From IMG/VR virus record IMGVR_UViG_3300027996_001047, positions 1 to 26,037 of that record: a stretch of 26,037 bases of DNA. The stretch is one strand, 5' to 3'. This DNA is from a virus. This document shows, in pieces, positions 5,768 through 24,276 of this stretch. Positions within the stretch are counted from its first letter, which is position 1. Each line of letters opens with the position of its first letter. The notes under the pieces are model-generated. The model saw only the letters and a program-made list of their open reading frames with translations. It had not been told where the DNA came from and ran no database searches. The translations under genes and the position numbers were made by a program.

Positions 5768-6123
5768 TTTTTACCTTCCATAACATAACGTGTTTTTTGA
5801 TTAGGAGACATTTTGTTGATCTCCTGACTAGTGGCGTCTCCGCCAAATTTGTCCACCCAAGTCTTGGGTTCTTCCGGCGTCTCTTCTTTTTTCTTAGCCG
5901 CCGCTTCCGCAATTTGGGTCTTATAGATCTTAGCGTTTTTATTCGCTAATTGACCAATAGTCTCCACCTTCTTCACTTGGAATCCTAGTCCACCAGAAAT
6001 AACTCTGAACAACGCGGGTTCCCCACACGCTGGACAGAGTTCTAATGGTTTTTCAGTTATCCCCTGTGTCACATCCTCAAGGAAGTGCTCACACTCTGAG
6101 CACTCATAGTCGTAATCTGGCAT
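5764..6123 (-). CDS. FmdB-type zinc-ribbon protein
   Basis: A 119-residue protein. Residues 1-45 match the FmdB/CxxC_CxxC_SSSS zinc ribbon: MPDYDYECSECEHF with CxxC, then LELCPACGEPALFRVISGG with a second CPxCG pair. Four cysteines would bind one zinc. The remainder is a charged helix (AKIYKTQIAEAAAKKKEE) and a polar tail. FmdB-like ribbons occur in many bacteria and phages as small putative regulators without a settled function. It directly follows phoH with no gap. Confidence 0.8.
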   Translation of the reverse strand: MPDYDYECSECEHFLEDVTQGITEKPLELCPACGEPALFRVISGGLGFQVKKVETIGQLANKNAKIYKTQIAEAAAKKKEETPEEPKTWVDKFGGDATSQEINKMSPNQKTRYVMEGKK

Positions 6124-9127: not shown

Positions 9128-9310
9128 TCAATCTTCTTTGTCTTTGAGTTTCTTAATCTTAAAAACAAGGTAAGTCAACGCTACCGCAGTGGCACAAAAT
9201 AAGAAGGCAAAACTTATTGGGTCGTTCTCTAAGACAACCTTACCTCCTGATGGATGCTCAATAGAAACGTCCTGTACTAATATTAACAGTTTAGAATATA
9301 TATCTCTCAT
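9128..9310 (-). CDS. small single-pass membrane protein
   Basis: About 60 residues with one hydrophobic helix (SFAFLFCATAVALTYLVF) followed by a basic tail (KIKKLKDKED), which predicts N-out/C-in topology. I chose the ATG that overlaps the nrdA stop (ATGA), since GGGAG is spaced for it; an ATG three codons earlier is too close to that site. Function unknown. Confidence 0.65.
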   Translation of the reverse strand: MRDIYSKLLILVQDVSIEHPSGGKVVLENDPISFAFLFCATAVALTYLVFKIKKLKDKED

Positions 9311-11535
9311 ATCGCACATGCTCCCGATTCACAGTTTATCTCCTTCTCGGTGTCACCATCGCCGTCAGGCGTGTTGGCGTAGTAAAAGTTCTTCAACCCC
9401 ATCTTGTAACCATAAAGCTGATCCTTAATAATTACGCTCAGTGGAATGTTCCCATCTGCGTACTGACCGTAGTTGTAGTACAGATTTGTACTCATACTCA
9501 TATCAGTAAACTTCTGGATAACAGCGGCGGTATCTATGACACCCTTGTTGTCTTCCATTTCCCAAGCCATAGTATAGAAATTCTTACGCATATGGTAGTT
9601 TGGCACCAGTTGTTTCAGAATGCCGTTCTTGGCCTTTTTGTGGATCAATAGACTACGTACTGGCTCAAGGCCGTTCGTGCTGTTCTGGATGACGCTGGAC
9701 GACTCACAGGGCATAATGGCAGACATAGTTGAGTGCCTAAGACCCCACTTAGCGATTCTCTCCCTAAGACCCTCCCAATCCATGTTGTAGACTGGCTCAA
9801 CCAACTGGTCTACGGTCTTCTTGTACCAGTCAATAGGTAGTAGTCCCCGAGCATACTTAGTGTCTTGGAACTTCTCACACGGCCCCTTTTCCCTAGCCAA
9901 CTCACAACTTGCGTTTAGGAGATTCCACTGGATCTGCTCCATAGACTCGTGAACAAGTTGGAGGGCAGCTTCCTCACCGTACTTCAGTTTGTTTTTAGCT
10001 AGAAAACCGGCTAGGTTTGTTATGCCAATACCAAGAGATCGTCTGTTTTTAGTAAAGTTCTCACCAGCGAGAACAGGATAATCTTGGTAATCAATAACAG
10101 ATTCCAGAGTTCGTACTGCCATCGTACAAGCATCTTCTACCTCTTTCTCACTGTTGAGTTCAAGTAGGTTTAGTGCTGACAGAATACAGATACCAATTTC
10201 TCCATCGGGGTCATCAATAGCCTTGATGGGTTTTGTAGGCTGGATGATCTCCTGACACAGGTTAGACATATACACTGGCACATCCCAAGAACCATGTTCG
10301 TTGGCAGTATCGATATTCATGCTGTACACACGTCCAGTCTCCAGACGTTCCCTAGCAAAGATCTCAGCTAACTTACGTGCTGGTATCTTCCTCTTAAACT
10401 TGAGAGATCTAGAGTTTTCGTACTTCACGTATAATTTCTCGAACTCTTCGTTGTTACCGAACGCCTCGTACAAACCCTTGGCTTCATGAGGGCTGAACAG
10501 GGTAATATCCTGATTCTCAATCAAACGGTCGTAGAACAGTTTACAAAACTGAACAGAGTAATCTAGCTTACGTACTCTATTATCGTCCGTTCCAGCATTA
10601 TTCTTGAGGACCATTATGTCTTCAACCTCATAATGCCAAAAAGGAAGGTGTACCGTCGCAGAGCCACCACGTAGCCCGTTCTGGGACGTTGACTTGACGC
10701 ACGACTCGAAGTTCTTTAGGTACGGGATCAGGCCCGTGTGGATCACCTCACCGCCTCTGATGGGCGAATTGATGGGACGCATACGCCCAATGTTCAGTCC
10801 AATCCCAGCACGACGTGCAGTATACCGCCCTACAGCGTGAAGACTTCCAAAGATGGCATCTAGATTATCATCGATATCAACCAGCACGCAGGAAGCGAAT
10901 TGACGTATATTAGTTCGAACACCAGCCATAATTGGGGTGGGGAGATTAATCTTGAATGTGGAATAGCAATCATAAGCCCTTTTTACCTCATCTACAGTGT
11001 CAAACAAACACATAGCGATAGCCATATAGGCGAACTGAGGGGTCTCGTAGATCTCACCTGTACTGCGGTTCTTAACGAGATATTTGTCAATCAACTGTTG
11101 TAGGCCAGCGTACGTGAATTGATCGTCGAGACCGTGATTGATGTACTTACCGAATGCGTCTACTTCTGCTCCAGTCCATCTTTCTTGGATAGACGGGTCG
11201 TAGATAGCGTTGTCCACGTTTCTCTGTATGAATACCAAGAAGTCAGTTGGCTGGTTCCCACTACCCCACACTTCTTTGCGTAGCTGCATGTTCAGTAGTC
11301 TAGCGGCGACATACTGATAGTTTGGTGCCGATTTTGAGATAAGATCGTTGGCACTCTTAATGAGGACTTTGTGGATATCCTCTGTTGGTATCCCATCGTA
11401 CAGAGATAGGTTAGCGTTCATCTCAATGTCTGAGAAGCTGACGCCATTGATTCCTTTCGTAGCCCACTCAAGTACTTTGTGGATTTTCTCAACGGAGAAA
11501 TCTTCCTTCTCCCCCGTTCTCTTCTTCACTTGCAT
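9307..11535 (-). CDS. nrdA: class Ia ribonucleotide reductase, alpha subunit (R1)
   Basis: A 742-residue large subunit, close to E. coli length, that reduces ribonucleoside diphosphates. Residues 1-90 form an ATP-cone (MQVKKRTGEKEDFSVEKIHK), so allosteric activity control is likely kept. Catalytic features are visible: Cys216 (QFASCVLVD), the Asn425-Cys427-Glu429 triad (SNLCQEI), Cys450 (IGICILSALN), the radical-transfer tyrosine pair in NLYYNYGQY, and the C-terminal redox tail CESGACAI, almost identical to the bacterial enzyme and able to accept electrons from thioredoxin or glutaredoxin. AAGGAA precedes the ATG. It is the first gene after a near-consensus promoter. Confidence 0.97.
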   Translation of the reverse strand: MQVKKRTGEKEDFSVEKIHKVLEWATKGINGVSFSDIEMNANLSLYDGIPTEDIHKVLIKSANDLISKSAPNYQYVAARLLNMQLRKEVWGSGNQPTDFLVFIQRNVDNAIYDPSIQERWTGAEVDAFGKYINHGLDDQFTYAGLQQLIDKYLVKNRSTGEIYETPQFAYMAIAMCLFDTVDEVKRAYDCYSTFKINLPTPIMAGVRTNIRQFASCVLVDIDDNLDAIFGSLHAVGRYTARRAGIGLNIGRMRPINSPIRGGEVIHTGLIPYLKNFESCVKSTSQNGLRGGSATVHLPFWHYEVEDIMVLKNNAGTDDNRVRKLDYSVQFCKLFYDRLIENQDITLFSPHEAKGLYEAFGNNEEFEKLYVKYENSRSLKFKRKIPARKLAEIFARERLETGRVYSMNIDTANEHGSWDVPVYMSNLCQEIIQPTKPIKAIDDPDGEIGICILSALNLLELNSEKEVEDACTMAVRTLESVIDYQDYPVLAGENFTKNRRSLGIGITNLAGFLAKNKLKYGEEAALQLVHESMEQIQWNLLNASCELAREKGPCEKFQDTKYARGLLPIDWYKKTVDQLVEPVYNMDWEGLRERIAKWGLRHSTMSAIMPCESSSVIQNSTNGLEPVRSLLIHKKAKNGILKQLVPNYHMRKNFYTMAWEMEDNKGVIDTAAVIQKFTDMSMSTNLYYNYGQYADGNIPLSVIIKDQLYGYKMGLKNFYYANTPDGDGDTEKEINCESGACAI

Positions 11536-20766: not shown

Positions 20767-20794
20767 TAAAAAAGACCGGCTCAAAAGCCGGTCT
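20767..20794 (-). terminator. intrinsic terminator of the RNA/tmRNA unit
   Basis: Minus-strand hairpin AGACCGGC TTTTGA GCCGGTCT, a perfect 8-bp stem, followed by a T run. It ends transcription from the promoter at 24248-24276 after the signal-peptide gene. Confidence 0.92.
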
Positions 20795-20810
20795 CAGGTG
20801 TTTAAGCATT

Positions 20811-21252: not shown

Positions 21253-21320
21253 TCAATCGCTTTTCCGCCGCTTCCATTATTAGGTACACAAAAACTGATG
21301 GAGACCGTGGGAAAAAGAAT

Positions 21321-21594
21321 TGGAGGCGGCGGAAGTCGAATCCGCGTGTTGTATAGGTTTCAAAATCAACAGTTTTTACATGTTTAGTGCCTAAGGCACG
21401 GTTCTTGCTGTTAGCGATAGTTCCCGAAGGATCTCTCTGTGATTGAGTGATGAGGCTCACAGAAGCCCCACAGCTTACGCTGCAAGTGCAAAAGAGTTTA
21501 CAGTTATCGTTTGGTGTGGTTTTTAGCTAGCCTCCACGCCACCTAGCACATGTTGTTGAAGTCTCCGTCTACCAATCAATTCCAGTACGCCCCC
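21321..21594 (-). ncRNA. ssrA: transfer-messenger RNA (tmRNA)
   Basis: A 274-nt phage tmRNA, short for the family (usually about 350 nt). The 5' end GGGGGCG pairs with CGCCTCC at the 3' end through seven pairs, with the G3.U70 wobble that alanyl-tRNA synthetase reads. A T arm with loop TTCGACT on a GCGGA/TCCGC stem precedes the 3' acceptor strand, and a D-like region GGAATTGATTGG follows the 5' strand. The tag reading frame ends in codons for SFALAA and TAA (21475-21477); GTA at 21499-21501 is the best resume codon, giving VNSFALAA. Downstream sequence folds into further hairpins. CCA is not encoded. It would rescue stalled ribosomes and mark the products for ClpXP-type proteases. Confidence 0.92.
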
Positions 21595-21622: not shown

Positions 21623-21731
21623 TGTGATTGACAGGAGTCGAACCTGCATAAACCGACCTGACACCCAATTTATGGGAAATAATACGAGAGTCAGGGTGAG
21701 TCGCCAATTGTCTCATTACGGCCACAATCAC
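21623..21731 (-). ncRNA. tRNA-like RNA with enlarged anticodon region
   Basis: Acceptor strands GTGATTG and CAATCAC pair perfectly, a short D stem GCC/GGC encloses a loop with GG, and the T arm GCAGG TTCGACT CCTGT is canonical. Between D and T arms there are ~55 nt instead of the ~22 of a normal tRNA. They contain CCTGAC...GTCAGG closing a region with a smaller CCCA...TGGG hairpin (inner loop could present AAA, but no normal 5-bp/7-nt anticodon arm is found). It may be a tRNA mimic, a tRNA with an insertion or a decayed tRNA. It is followed by the tmRNA. Confidence 0.6.
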
Positions 21732-22048: not shown

Positions 22049-23806
22049 CTACTTGAATAGCTTAGTAAAGCTATCCTTTGTCAACTTATCCACAGAGAAG
22101 TCTAGGACTTCATCCTCTGGATCGATTTCAGTAACAACTTCCGCACCCAGTGTTTGTAGCAACAGTCCGAAGTCAAACACGCTCTTGTATTGTTCGTACA
22201 GAGCCTGCACTCCCAATGTGTTTCTACCTCCGACCCTTGCGTGACCAGCACCAAAGTTCAGAAGAACAAAAGACTGAGTATCGTTCGATTCAGGCAAAAA
22301 CATCCCAAGGATCATTTGCTTCTGAACCGCTTCAGTCCGTACTTCCATCGTAACCTTATTGGGGTCCATCAGGAACTTCTTGTCAACACTGTCTCCAGCA
22401 CCAACAATGATCTTGTATCCGGATGTATCAGACCCTGAGTATACGTTATTATGTACAAGCCAAGGCTGATTAGTCCCACTCTTACAGTGTAGGTATTCCA
22501 CAGCCCCGCTAGGAGCGTTAGTAATGTCCCCACTGTAAGTAAGTAACCCCGTAGAGTACCCAGCGTTCCAACCAATCTTTTCACCAGTAATAGCACTGGC
22601 AGAGAGGTCAAGGTCACGAGCACCCCAAGCATTTTCCCAGTAGATCCCAACGCATAGCTTTTCTCCGAAAAACTTGCTGCCCGTAGGAATATTCCCCACA
22701 AACATCTTTTCAGAGGTAGGCACAGCGTATGATACATCCTCTGGAAGGAAAACCTTAGTCCCTAACAGATTCCAACGCTTAGTAGCGTAGTCAGACAGGA
22801 AATTAAAGTTCTGCACCATGTCCAAGACCTTAGGTGCATTACCTTCCTTAACCCAACTCTTACCATTACGAATACGGTAATTGAATACAGTTTGACCCTG
22901 CATACGATTGAAAACCGCAGTCATAGCTTTGAACACAGCGAAGGGCGTAGCGTTGTCCAACCAGTGAAGGTCACAAGTAGTCAACACACGACTTGTCACT
23001 TCATTCAAAGCGTTCTGTGGAACAGGCTTATGACGAGTCTTAGACAGCTTTGAGATCTTATTGATGACAGCAGGGCATCGACCCTTGAATGCCAAAAACA
23101 GTGGCTTAAAGCGATTGAAGATGGTCGCCAGACGGTCCACTCCATGAGCACGGAACTGAACAGATGGGTTAAAAGACGATTCCTTGATAGCAGCAATAGC
23201 CTTGTCATTCTTGATCAACAGGGTTTCCCCAGTCGCACGGTAGATGACGTAACGGAAGAACTCCATTGTATCGTCAGGAATAACGCCATACGCATCAGCA
23301 ATCTTGATGATCGCTTCTTTGTTCTTAACGCCTTCCTTTCCGGTAAATGAGTAGTTCAATTCGTCATGTAGAATAGATAGCAAACTGTCAACGGTTTCTT
23401 CAGTCAGGGCGATACCTGAGCGAAGCATGTCCAAACAGCGTTCTGTCATTTCTTCCACGGTCAAACCACGAACAACCTTGAACGTCAACTTAACGTCAGG
23501 CACTTCCAGAACTTCGTCTGGGATGTACATTTCGTCTTCAAAGTTGCTACCGTAAGTAGATGCGTAGTGACGGATCTGCTCCATAGCAAGTTCAAAACGA
23601 GATGAGTTGCGTACCCTCGCGAAACTCTTATGGAAACCCTTGTTCAGGTCATTCCCGTCCAACTTGTTCTGACCATAGAACGCAACGATGCGATCCTTAG
23701 CCCAAGCAGCGTCTGGAGTAACAACAAACCCTTGGTCTGACACGAATGGGTCAACCGACTTGCTTGGCTTGGCTACAACAGCGTTAAACAATTCCAGAGT
23801 TTTCAT
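22049..23806 (-). CDS. 585-residue protein of unknown function linked to the RNA array
   Basis: The largest unassigned protein here. Residues ~35-345 are mostly helical, with conserved-looking blocks FHKSFARVRNSSRFELAMEQ, IRHYASTYG, EDEMYIPDEVLEVPD and NKISKLSKTRHKPVPQNALN. Residues ~365-520 are beta-rich; ARDLDLSASAITGEKIGW... followed by YSGDITNAPSGAVEYLH recalls the pattern of TerD-type domains (LDxS, then GD-x-T), a weak resemblance. I sense a family also present in bacterial chromosomes but cannot name it. GGAAGG precedes the ATG. The five RNA elements lie directly in its leader and more structured RNA follows it, so an RNA-binding role is the leading hypothesis. No TROVE or vWA signature can be pointed to. 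Confidence 0.7.
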   Translation of the reverse strand: MKTLELFNAVVAKPSKSVDPFVSDQGFVVTPDAAWAKDRIVAFYGQNKLDGNDLNKGFHKSFARVRNSSRFELAMEQIRHYASTYGSNFEDEMYIPDEVLEVPDVKLTFKVVRGLTVEEMTERCLDMLRSGIALTEETVDSLLSILHDELNYSFTGKEGVKNKEAIIKIADAYGVIPDDTMEFFRYVIYRATGETLLIKNDKAIAAIKESSFNPSVQFRAHGVDRLATIFNRFKPLFLAFKGRCPAVINKISKLSKTRHKPVPQNALNEVTSRVLTTCDLHWLDNATPFAVFKAMTAVFNRMQGQTVFNYRIRNGKSWVKEGNAPKVLDMVQNFNFLSDYATKRWNLLGTKVFLPEDVSYAVPTSEKMFVGNIPTGSKFFGEKLCVGIYWENAWGARDLDLSASAITGEKIGWNAGYSTGLLTYSGDITNAPSGAVEYLHCKSGTNQPWLVHNNVYSGSDTSGYKIIVGAGDSVDKKFLMDPNKVTMEVRTEAVQKQMILGMFLPESNDTQSFVLLNFGAGHARVGGRNTLGVQALYEQYKSVFDFGLLLQTLGAEVVTEIDPEDEVLDFSVDKLTKDSFTKLFK

Positions 23807-23827
23807 AGCTAACGTCCTTCCTAAAAA

Positions 23828-23913
23828 ATAAGTGGAGAGTAGATTTTTTGGAGCCGCCTTGCCACCGAAGTGGCCCTAGCGGCAGAGGTTTAATAGGAAC
23901 TCTCTATACCTAT
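23828..23913 (-). ncRNA. array RNA element A
   Basis: An 86-nt element on the minus strand. Terminal helix ATAGGT/ACTTAT, then ATAG opposite CC, a 4-bp helix AGAG/CTCT, then TTCCTAT opposite CTA. Inside is a long arm GCCGC...GCGGC capped by GCCAC TTCG GTGGC (a cUUCGg tetraloop, which fixes the RNA strand as minus). It ends 22 nt before the start codon of the 585-residue gene, so it is either a released small RNA or part of that gene's 5' leader. Confidence 0.7.
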
Positions 23914-23921
23914 GTTTTAAC

Positions 23922-23968
23922 TGGGCGAAGAGTAAGTTTCAATTTTTTATAGGAACTCTTTATGCCCA
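23922..23968 (-). ncRNA. array RNA element B (minimal hairpin)
   Basis: A 47-nt hairpin: TGGGC/GCCCA outer helix, ATAA opposite TC, AGAG/CTCT inner helix, then TTCCTATAAAAA and GAAACTTA closing the loop. It is nearly identical in its loop to element E, while both helices differ with compensation. Confidence 0.7.
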
Positions 23969-23982
23969 TGATTTGTATCACT

Positions 23983-24068
23983 GTGGTGGAAAGTATAGGA
24001 TTTGAACCTAAACCCCCGAAAGGGTTTACCATGCTACCGAAGTAGCGGATAGGAACTTTCTGTACCAC
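23983..24068 (-). ncRNA. array RNA element C, with T-loop-like arm
   Basis: An 86-nt element, same length as A. Terminal helix GTGGT/ACCAC, ACAG opposite CC, AAAG/CTTT, TTCCTAT opposite ATA. Inside are three arms: GCTAC TTCG GTAGC, a second arm TAAACCC/GGGTTTA, and TAGG TTCAAAT CCTA, whose loop is a canonical T-loop. The 3' strand could also be read as an acceptor ending ACCA, but D arm and variable-loop sizes do not fit a tRNA. A tRNA-like small RNA is the better description. Confidence 0.7.
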
Positions 24069-24071
24069 TAA

Positions 24072-24184
24072 TGCAAGCGGCAGGATTCGAACCTGCATCT
24101 AACAGTTTAAAATTTGTTAGGAACTTGATTTTAACCGTAGTTGACAAGTAACATCTGGTGCTCTGCCAATTGAGCTACGCTTGC
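24072..24184 (-). ncRNA. array RNA element D: tRNA body with the array motif in place of the anticodon arm
   Basis: A 113-nt RNA. Acceptor GCAAGCG/CGCTTGC, TA, D arm GCTC AATTGGCA GAGC and T arm GCAGG TTCGAAT CCTGC are all perfect for a tRNA. The ~62 nt between D and T arms replace the usual ~22 and contain the array motif in permuted order: TTA, CTTG, TC, AAC, tetraloop TACG, GTT, AAAAT, CAAG, TTCCTA. A flanking CTAACA/TGTTAG stem with an ATTTTAA loop could alternatively be a poor Lys(UUU) anticodon arm with a 10-nt loop. It may be a tRNA mimic rather than an amino-acid carrier. CCA is not encoded. Confidence 0.72.
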
Positions 24185-24241
24185 AAAAAAAAGACGAGGG
24201 GTAAGTTTCATAAATTGATTTTTATAGGAACCCCTGTTGTC
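24185..24241 (-). ncRNA. array RNA element E with its own U-tract
   Basis: Hairpin GAC/GTC, AACA opposite TC, GGGG/CCCC, then TTCCTATAAAAA ... GAAACTTA, followed by eight T that abut the 5' end of element D. The promoter's expected start falls at the first stem base (~24241), so promoter, hairpin and T tract can make a small RNA of about 55 nt, with read-through needed for the rest of the array. Confidence 0.7.
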
Positions 24242-24247
24242 TCATAT

Positions 24248-24276
24248 ATTATAGTCTACTGGACCCTGTTTGTCAA
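24248..24276 (-). promoter_or_regulatory. sigma70-type promoter of the RNA array and 585-residue gene
   Basis: Minus-strand TTGACA (24271-24276) and TATAAT (24248-24253) with a 17-nt spacer, a perfect consensus, and GTAGAC directly before TATAAT. The next good terminator is at 20767-20794. Confidence 0.87.

What the first reader, a model, noticed from the sequence alone, without database searches (positions are those of the whole stretch)
22049..24241. Possible Ro/Y-RNA-like ribonucleoprotein system: 585-residue protein plus RNA array
Bacterial Ro (Rsr) proteins are encoded beside their Y RNAs, which pair a bulged terminal stem with a tRNA-like module. Here RNAs with that plan lie immediately 5' of a large, partly helical protein on the same strand and promoter. 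The protein is close to Ro length (~530) but I see no TROVE or metal-site signature; it may be an unrelated protein filling the same niche.
Basis: inference. Interest (0 to 1): 0.8.

Follow-up and report, generated by a model that had tools for sequence, protein, structure and literature searches.

The report
Tandem tRNA-mimic RNAs with repair-linked protein
A phage, and many Bacteroidota bacteria, carry an apparently undescribed RNA-protein system in which a row of small structured RNAs, some built on a tRNA body, sits beside a gene for an uncharacterised protein and, in the bacteria, beside RNA-repair enzymes, so it may be an independent counterpart of the Ro/Y-RNA particles.

Summary
On the minus strand, four copies of a covarying RNA hairpin (outer helix, AWA bulge, inner helix, UUCCU...WUA) and one tRNA body carrying the same stem in its anticodon loop lie between a 12/12 sigma-70 consensus and a 585-residue gene. 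Relatives of the protein occur in other phages, about half with tRNA genes nearby, and in Bacteroidota chromosomes. The RNA motif accompanies 13 of 13 distinct full phage relatives and 80 of 80 bacterial loci. A scan by RNA pattern alone reached 31 contigs; 26 hold the protein. In bacteria the usual order is rtcB, RNA array, gene, with RlaP nearby and a divergent WYL regulator: RtcB in 62 of 67 full-flank loci, though 59 of the 80 loci are Chryseobacterium. This is the niche of Ro, Y RNA and RtcB, yet the protein is not detectably TROVE: a helical N-half of unresolved fold plus a TerD-fold C-half. Best reading: an RNP that works like Ro/Y RNA, built from different parts, probably serving tRNA repair. 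RNA expression, binding and function are untested; Burroughs & Aravind 2016, the likeliest prior mention, could not be read.

The parts
24248..24276 (-). sigma-70 type promoter TTGACA-N17-TATAAT before the array
   Evidence: 12 of 12 consensus matches; consensus match only, no transcript data
24191..24243 (-). RNA motif copy 1 (outer GAGAC/GTCTT, bulge AAC, inner AGGGG/CCCCT, UUCCU, UUA)
   Evidence: strict scan; R1 57.7 bits (this copy is in the model)
24072..24184 (-). tRNA-body hybrid: acceptor, D arm, T arm of a tRNA with the motif stem in the anticodon-arm position (circular permutation of the other copies)
   Evidence: Rfam tRNA 51.4 bits with a 49-nt insert; permuted-motif scan at 24119-24151; covariation of 24 hybrids
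23983..24068 (-). RNA motif copy 2, 54-nt module with two hairpins and a T-arm-like end
   Evidence: strict scan; R1 28.3 bits, not in the model; module read by eye
23922..23968 (-). RNA motif copy 3, short loop
   Evidence: strict scan; R1 56.1 bits (in the model)
23828..23913 (-). RNA motif copy 4, gene-proximal, ends 21 nt before the ATG
   Evidence: strict scan; R1 35.5 bits, not in the model
22049..23806 (-). 585-aa protein of the system
   Evidence: open frame; relatives; no Pfam, PHROG, NCBIfam or PADLOC family
22757..23806 (-). helical N-half, residues about 1-350
   Evidence: AlphaFold2 models, pLDDT 81-82, residues 86-107 under 50; no PDB fold above Z 5.3
22199..22750 (-). TerD-fold C-half, residues 353-536, with invariant D398, D400, S425-G426-D427, T429, E437
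   Evidence: 3ibz Z 12.6, rmsd 4.1, 142 aligned; 2kxt Z 10.5, rmsd 3.0, 140 aligned; invariant columns
21318..21594 (-). tmRNA gene downstream, possibly the same transcription unit
   Evidence: Rfam RF00023 52.2 bits; co-transcription inferred
20772..20795 (-). intrinsic terminator, possible end of the unit
   Evidence: 10-pair stem then T run; consensus only

Best explanation
A protein (helical N-half plus TerD-fold C-half) and an array of small RNAs form a ribonucleoprotein that works like Ro (Rsr) with Y RNA but is made of different parts. The protein is inferred to bind the conserved bulged helix that every RNA shares; the variable end of each RNA is an effector module, in some a T-arm/elbow mimic, in others a whole tRNA body. 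By tRNA mimicry the RNAs would gather tRNA-handling enzymes (RtcB ligase, RlaP nucleotidyltransferase) or compete for anticodon nucleases, so that cut tRNAs are repaired or spared. Phages carry it, often near tRNA genes, plausibly against host anticodon nucleases. Shown here: the RNA family and its structure, its link to the protein, the tRNA parts, and the RtcB/RlaP/WYL neighbourhood in bacteria. Inferred: RNA-protein binding, that the copies are separate RNAs, and the role in tRNA repair.
For: RNA motif beside or near the gene in 13 of 13 distinct full phage relatives and 80 of 80 bacterial loci (79 of 80 under a stricter rule, 203 of 207 copies within 700 nt 5', 2 of 207 on the other strand). 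Reverse test: an RNA-only pattern hit 31 viral contigs; the protein lies in 26 (23 in the stretch held; 3 elsewhere in the record). Covariation of the motif and of hybrids (97.5% of 672 cells paired, 19 of 28 pairs change on both sides, 0 of 500 shuffles). T-arm hairpins 18 of 302 against 0.18; hybrids in 52 of 80 bacterial loci. RtcB on the same strand in 62 of 67 full-flank loci, mostly 180-760 nt upstream; RlaP 51 of 67; divergent WYL 59 of 67. Distal copies (G010, Phass-1, G018) and copies 3' of the gene (L013, L015, L017) argue for separate RNAs. TROVE genes lie in the same island in L131 and L152.
Against: No RNA expression or binding data. 59 of 80 bacterial loci are Chryseobacterium; RtcB is near in 59 of 59 of these but 11 of 21 others. 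RtcB is in only 3 of 18 phage records, so in phages the partner must usually be another enzyme. Only 15 of 31 phage stretches scanned have any tRNA gene by ARAGORN. Most modules are short loops of 10-29 nt with no tRNA feature. Distant relatives Weasels2 (L004) and LR745208 (L005), alike only in part of the C-terminal region, lack the motif.
Confidence: 0.72

Rival explanations
1. Cis-acting leader: the motifs are protein-binding sites in the gene's own 5' UTR through which the protein regulates its own synthesis; the arrays are repeated operator hairpins.
For: The motif is directly 5' of the gene in 80 of 80 bacterial loci, and in the window the last copy ends 21 nt before the ATG. This may be true of the last copy in addition to the main reading.
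Against: tRNA bodies and T arms inside the elements; copies 3' of the gene (L013, L015, L017) and 20 to 145 kb away (G018, G010), there between tRNA genes (L030, L034).
Confidence: 0.13
2. The protein is a very diverged TROVE/Ro60 and the RNAs are diverged Y RNAs.
For: Same genomic niche, same overall plan (helical half plus a possibly metal-binding half); another phage protein near abundant RNAs was matched to Rsr by HHpred by its authors (PMC12282133, passages read).
Against: hhalign against 13 Bacteroidota TROVE proteins gives 0.3% and 0.5%; C-half is TerD, not vWA; 3 of 296 Bacteroidota genomes hold both genes as separate loci.
Confidence: 0.08
3. Decoy only: the tRNA-like RNAs soak up anticodon nucleases or tRNA-binding effectors, and the protein merely stabilises them.
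For: Hybrids have a tRNA body whose anticodon loop is replaced; several phage copies lie in tRNA clusters; competitive inhibition is offered as a possibility for YrlA (PMC7790460, passages read).
Against: RtcB and RlaP neighbours fit repair better; most copies have no tRNA part.
Confidence: 0.1
4. DNA-level repeats (recombination or integration sites), not RNA.
For: Tandem short inverted repeats, in places beside tRNA genes.
Against: Compensatory changes in every helix; copies in one array differ in helix sequence; 205 of 207 bacterial copies are on the gene's strand.
Confidence: 0.02

Closest known systems
Bacterial Ro60 (Rsr, TROVE) with Y RNA / YrlA, and the rsr-yrlBA-rtcBA operon
   Same: Protein gene beside small RNAs that join a bulged terminal helix to a tRNA-like module; RtcB neighbour; divergent regulator (RtcR in Salmonella, WYL here).
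   Different: No detectable TROVE homology; TerD C-half in place of vWA; a conserved RNA helix of its own (UUCCU...WUA, AWA bulge); arrays of several RNAs; tRNA bodies in both circular permutations; RlaP partner.
TerD / tellurite-resistance proteins
   Same: C-half has the TerD fold (3ibz Z 12.6).
   Different: No Pfam TerD match; fused to a helical half; RNA-repair genes rather than ter genes next to it.
SPFH/Band-7 with a tRNA-like RNA in RNA-repair systems (Burroughs and Aravind 2016; recalled from its abstract, the paper is not held)
   Same: Scaffold protein with a cognate tRNA-like RNA next to RNA-repair enzymes.
   Different: No Band-7 match in the Pfam scans of this family; whether that paper already mentions the present protein could not be checked.

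Membership tests
Ro60/Rsr (TROVE proteins) | TROVE domain by sequence profile | tested here: not met
   No PF05731 hit in scans of P0001 and relatives; hhalign against 13 TROVE proteins 0.3% and 0.5%
Ro60/Rsr (TROVE proteins) | HEAT-ring fold of the TROVE domain | tested here: inconclusive
   N-half model alone, best Z 5.3, scraps of helical-repeat proteins only
Ro60/Rsr (TROVE proteins) | C-terminal vWA domain | tested here: not met
   The C-half matches TerD (three chains titled TerD at Z 10.5-12.6)
Ro60/Rsr (TROVE proteins) | gene beside its small RNAs, with RtcB in repair operons | tested here: met
Y RNA / YrlA | match to a described RNA family | tested here: not met
   Rfam 15 gives only tRNA and tmRNA above threshold in the window and 8 bacterial loci
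Y RNA / YrlA | terminal bulged helix plus tRNA-like module | tested here: met
   the tRNA part holds for a minority of copies
Y RNA / YrlA | bound by the neighbouring protein in cells | not testable with these tools
   needs pull-down
TerD family | TerD fold | tested here: met
TerD family | calcium binding | not testable with these tools
   invariant acidic residues only; the site assignment is inference

The most novel reading that the evidence does not exclude
An RNA-repair ribonucleoprotein that arose independently of Ro/Y RNA: a TerD-fold scaffold protein with a family of tether RNAs that exist in nature in two circular permutations of one architecture (tRNA body open at its acceptor with the protein-binding stem closed, or stem open with the acceptor closed), phage lineages being the more diverse and Bacteroidota chromosomes holding a set nested among them. 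It would put tRNA mimicry at the centre of two unrelated RNA-repair scaffolds.
Probability: 0.55. Interest if true: 0.95.

Novelty: new variant of a known kind. Interest (0 to 1): 0.9.

Why it matters
What Ro and Y RNAs do beside RtcB in bacteria is an open question. A second, apparently unrelated system of the same plan in culturable Chryseobacterium and Flavobacterium gives an independent handle: what the two share (bulged helix, tRNA elbow, RtcB neighbour) is likely to be what matters. It adds an RNA family absent from Rfam and a protein family absent from Pfam, NCBIfam and PHROGs, and suggests that phages carry RNP-based tRNA protection, in some cases together with tRNA genes.

Tried and rejected
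Profile searches of the protein against Pfam, PHROGs, NCBIfam, PADLOC and the PDB sequences found no family. N-half fold searches gave only weak helical matches; Ro was not in the lists, which does not exclude it. A single-sequence scan of viral contigs found nothing; the alignment scan worked. L046, with two motif copies 1.9 kb apart, was tested for a recoded gene (TAG=Q, table 4) without success; the copies there lie between tRNA genes. Listeria phage P100, a possible carrier of the Rsr-like protein of PMC12282133, was probed over 25-60 kb with profiles of this family and of TROVE: nothing. Pfam TROVE in 20 phage records: 0 of 20.

Dropped before counting: L006 (the window itself), L016, L018, L020, L022, L023, L028, L031, L032, L043, L050 (same contigs as other loci), L035 and L037 (near-copies of L034's array; dropped only), L052-L074 (sub-stretches). 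Seven of the 31 contigs were already known from the protein search. The five without the protein (L035, L036, L037, L046, L047) are contigs of 291, 17, 50, 65 and 5 kb, so absence there is not shown. In one search the L111 hit at 5783-5890 is probably spurious. One search also lists long-range pairings between neighbouring copies, which removes.

Literature: nine searches. None of the listings joins this protein, TerD and RtcB, apart from PMC7824862, whose passages treat them separately. PMC7159879 (passages) and PMC7765460 (passages) add nothing on this protein. Burroughs and Aravind 2016 and two papers of the Wolin group are not held, so prior mention is not excluded.

Full report
What is there. 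On the minus strand of the window a 12/12 sigma-70 consensus (24276-24248) is followed by four copies of one RNA motif, a tRNA-body hybrid, and the 585-residue gene. Downstream on the same strand lie a tmRNA (21318-21594) and a terminator-like hairpin (20795-20772). The motif reads: outer helix of 3-12 pairs, AWA bulge opposite a single C, inner helix of 5 pairs, UUCCU, a variable module, WUA.

Chance and structure. A strict scan finds 48 copies in the window and the first 16 related loci against 1.2 in shuffles. In 24 short copies 95.4% of 240 cells pair and all ten pairs show changes on both sides. The scan demanded most of those pairs; the fifth inner pair (23 of 24) and the second outermost pair (23 of 24) were not demanded and carry the same signal. 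Rfam knows none of it: only tRNA and tmRNA reach threshold.

The link. Among distinct phage relatives with the whole gene the motif is beside or near it in 13 of 13, including S-CRM01, S-CBWM1 and Phass-1; in Phass-1 the array lies about 1.3 kb downstream of the gene, and in S-CBWM1 one of its two copies is 2.5 kb upstream. A search of bacterial genomes with the protein alignment gave 125 relatives, of which the best 80 were kept, all Bacteroidota by title. All 80 have the motif just 5' of the gene (79 of 80 by a stricter rule), and the covariance model confirms the 40 of 80 loci given to it. Searched the other way, an RNA pattern alone reached 31 viral contigs, of which 26 hold the protein. 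Genome-wide in 25 phage records, 24 hold copies; most copies adjoin the gene, but G010, G018 and Phass-1 have distal ones, and some sit between tRNA genes (L030, L034, L046).

tRNA parts. Of 302 copies, 18 carry a canonical T-arm hairpin in the module (shuffle mean 0.18, maximum 1). In four phage copies (L001, L010 twice, L013) the module is a circularly permuted tRNA: T arm, capped acceptor, D arm (sequences, arms read by eye). The opposite permutation, a tRNA open at its acceptor with the motif stem grown from the anticodon arm, is in the window, in L026 and in 52 of 80 bacterial loci, usually first in the array. In 24 of these hybrids 97.5% of 672 cells pair, 19 of 28 pairs change on both sides, and a short anticodon stem survives. 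That the two layouts are permutations of one architecture is my reading of the alignments.

The protein. Two AlphaFold2 models (pLDDT 81 and 82) give a helical N-half and a beta C-half. The C-half is TerD (Z 12.6, rmsd 4.1, 142 residues to 3ibz). The N-half has no convincing match (best Z 5.3). Against a profile of 13 Bacteroidota TROVE proteins, one of which was checked and matches PDB TROVE and Ro chains, the family scores 0.3-0.5%. In a sample of 296 Bacteroidota genomes this protein is in 6 and TROVE in 24, three genomes having both. In two of the 80 loci a TROVE gene lies in the same island (L131, L152).

Neighbours. In 67 bacterial loci with full flanks, RtcB is on the same strand in 62, mostly ending 180-760 nt before the gene, so that the array lies between the two; RlaP is present in 51, and a WYL regulator on the opposite strand in 59 (families named, counts). 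Sampling is skewed: Chryseobacterium 59 of 59, other genera 11 of 21. Some loci also carry arrays of ordinary tRNA genes (L075, L114, L149, L153). RtcB is found in only 3 of 18 phage records, and only 15 of 31 phage stretches have a tRNA gene by ARAGORN (L022 repeats L017).

History. A tree of 52 proteins places all bacterial rows inside one part of a wider phage diversity, with at least two changes of label forced by well-supported branches; the root is a midpoint and several phage branches are long, so direction is suggestive only.

How it may work. Salmonella keeps Ro (Rsr), Y RNAs and RtcB in one operon with a divergent regulator, and in Deinococcus the Y RNA tethers Rsr to PNPase (PMC7790460, passages read). 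The present system has the same layout with a different protein and different RNAs. I infer that the protein holds the bulged helix and that the tRNA-like modules gather tRNA-handling enzymes, so that cleaved tRNAs are repaired, or nucleases are distracted. Phage carriage, in some cases inside tRNA clusters, fits defence of tRNAs against anticodon nucleases. None of these functional steps was tested.

Verdict.

Noticed in passing
window 21318-21594 (-): tmRNA gene (Rfam 52.2 bits, missed by ARAGORN); one frame reads a tag ending ALAA before a stop (by eye).
   Followed up: partly
window 21623-21731 (-): Another tRNA-like stretch with matching acceptor ends and a T arm but an enlarged middle, between the gene and the tmRNA; read by eye, it lacks UUCCU.
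   Followed up: no
window 25062-25035 (-): A second 12/12 sigma-70 consensus, directly before tRNA-Ala.
   Followed up: no
window 9307-11535 (-): Ribonucleotide reductase large subunit; nearest phage records are T4-like cyanophages at about 55% identity, while the array protein is closest to Bacteroidota chromosomal copies.
   Followed up: partly
L131 12800-13747, L152 11531-12916: TROVE (Ro) genes in the same RNA-repair island as this system.
   Followed up: partly
L075 3003-4694, L149 915-3259, L114 8439-9104, L153 10222-10802: Arrays of ordinary tRNA genes within the bacterial islands, recalling phage tRNA clusters.
   Followed up: no
L004 1714-3789: Rhodococcus phage Weasels2 protein (phrog_33734, unknown function) in a tRNA cluster is alike mainly in the C-half and lacks the RNA motif; an RtcB-like frame lies in the surrounding locus L020.
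   Followed up: partly
BFVD A0A8S5LVH0, H6SUA9, A0A291I9M6: Large uncharacterised phage proteins (one from Campylobacter virus IBB35, one from Lactobacillus phage LpeD) match most of the model by fold, E 1e-13 to 1e-19; whether they have RNA arrays was not checked.
   Followed up: no
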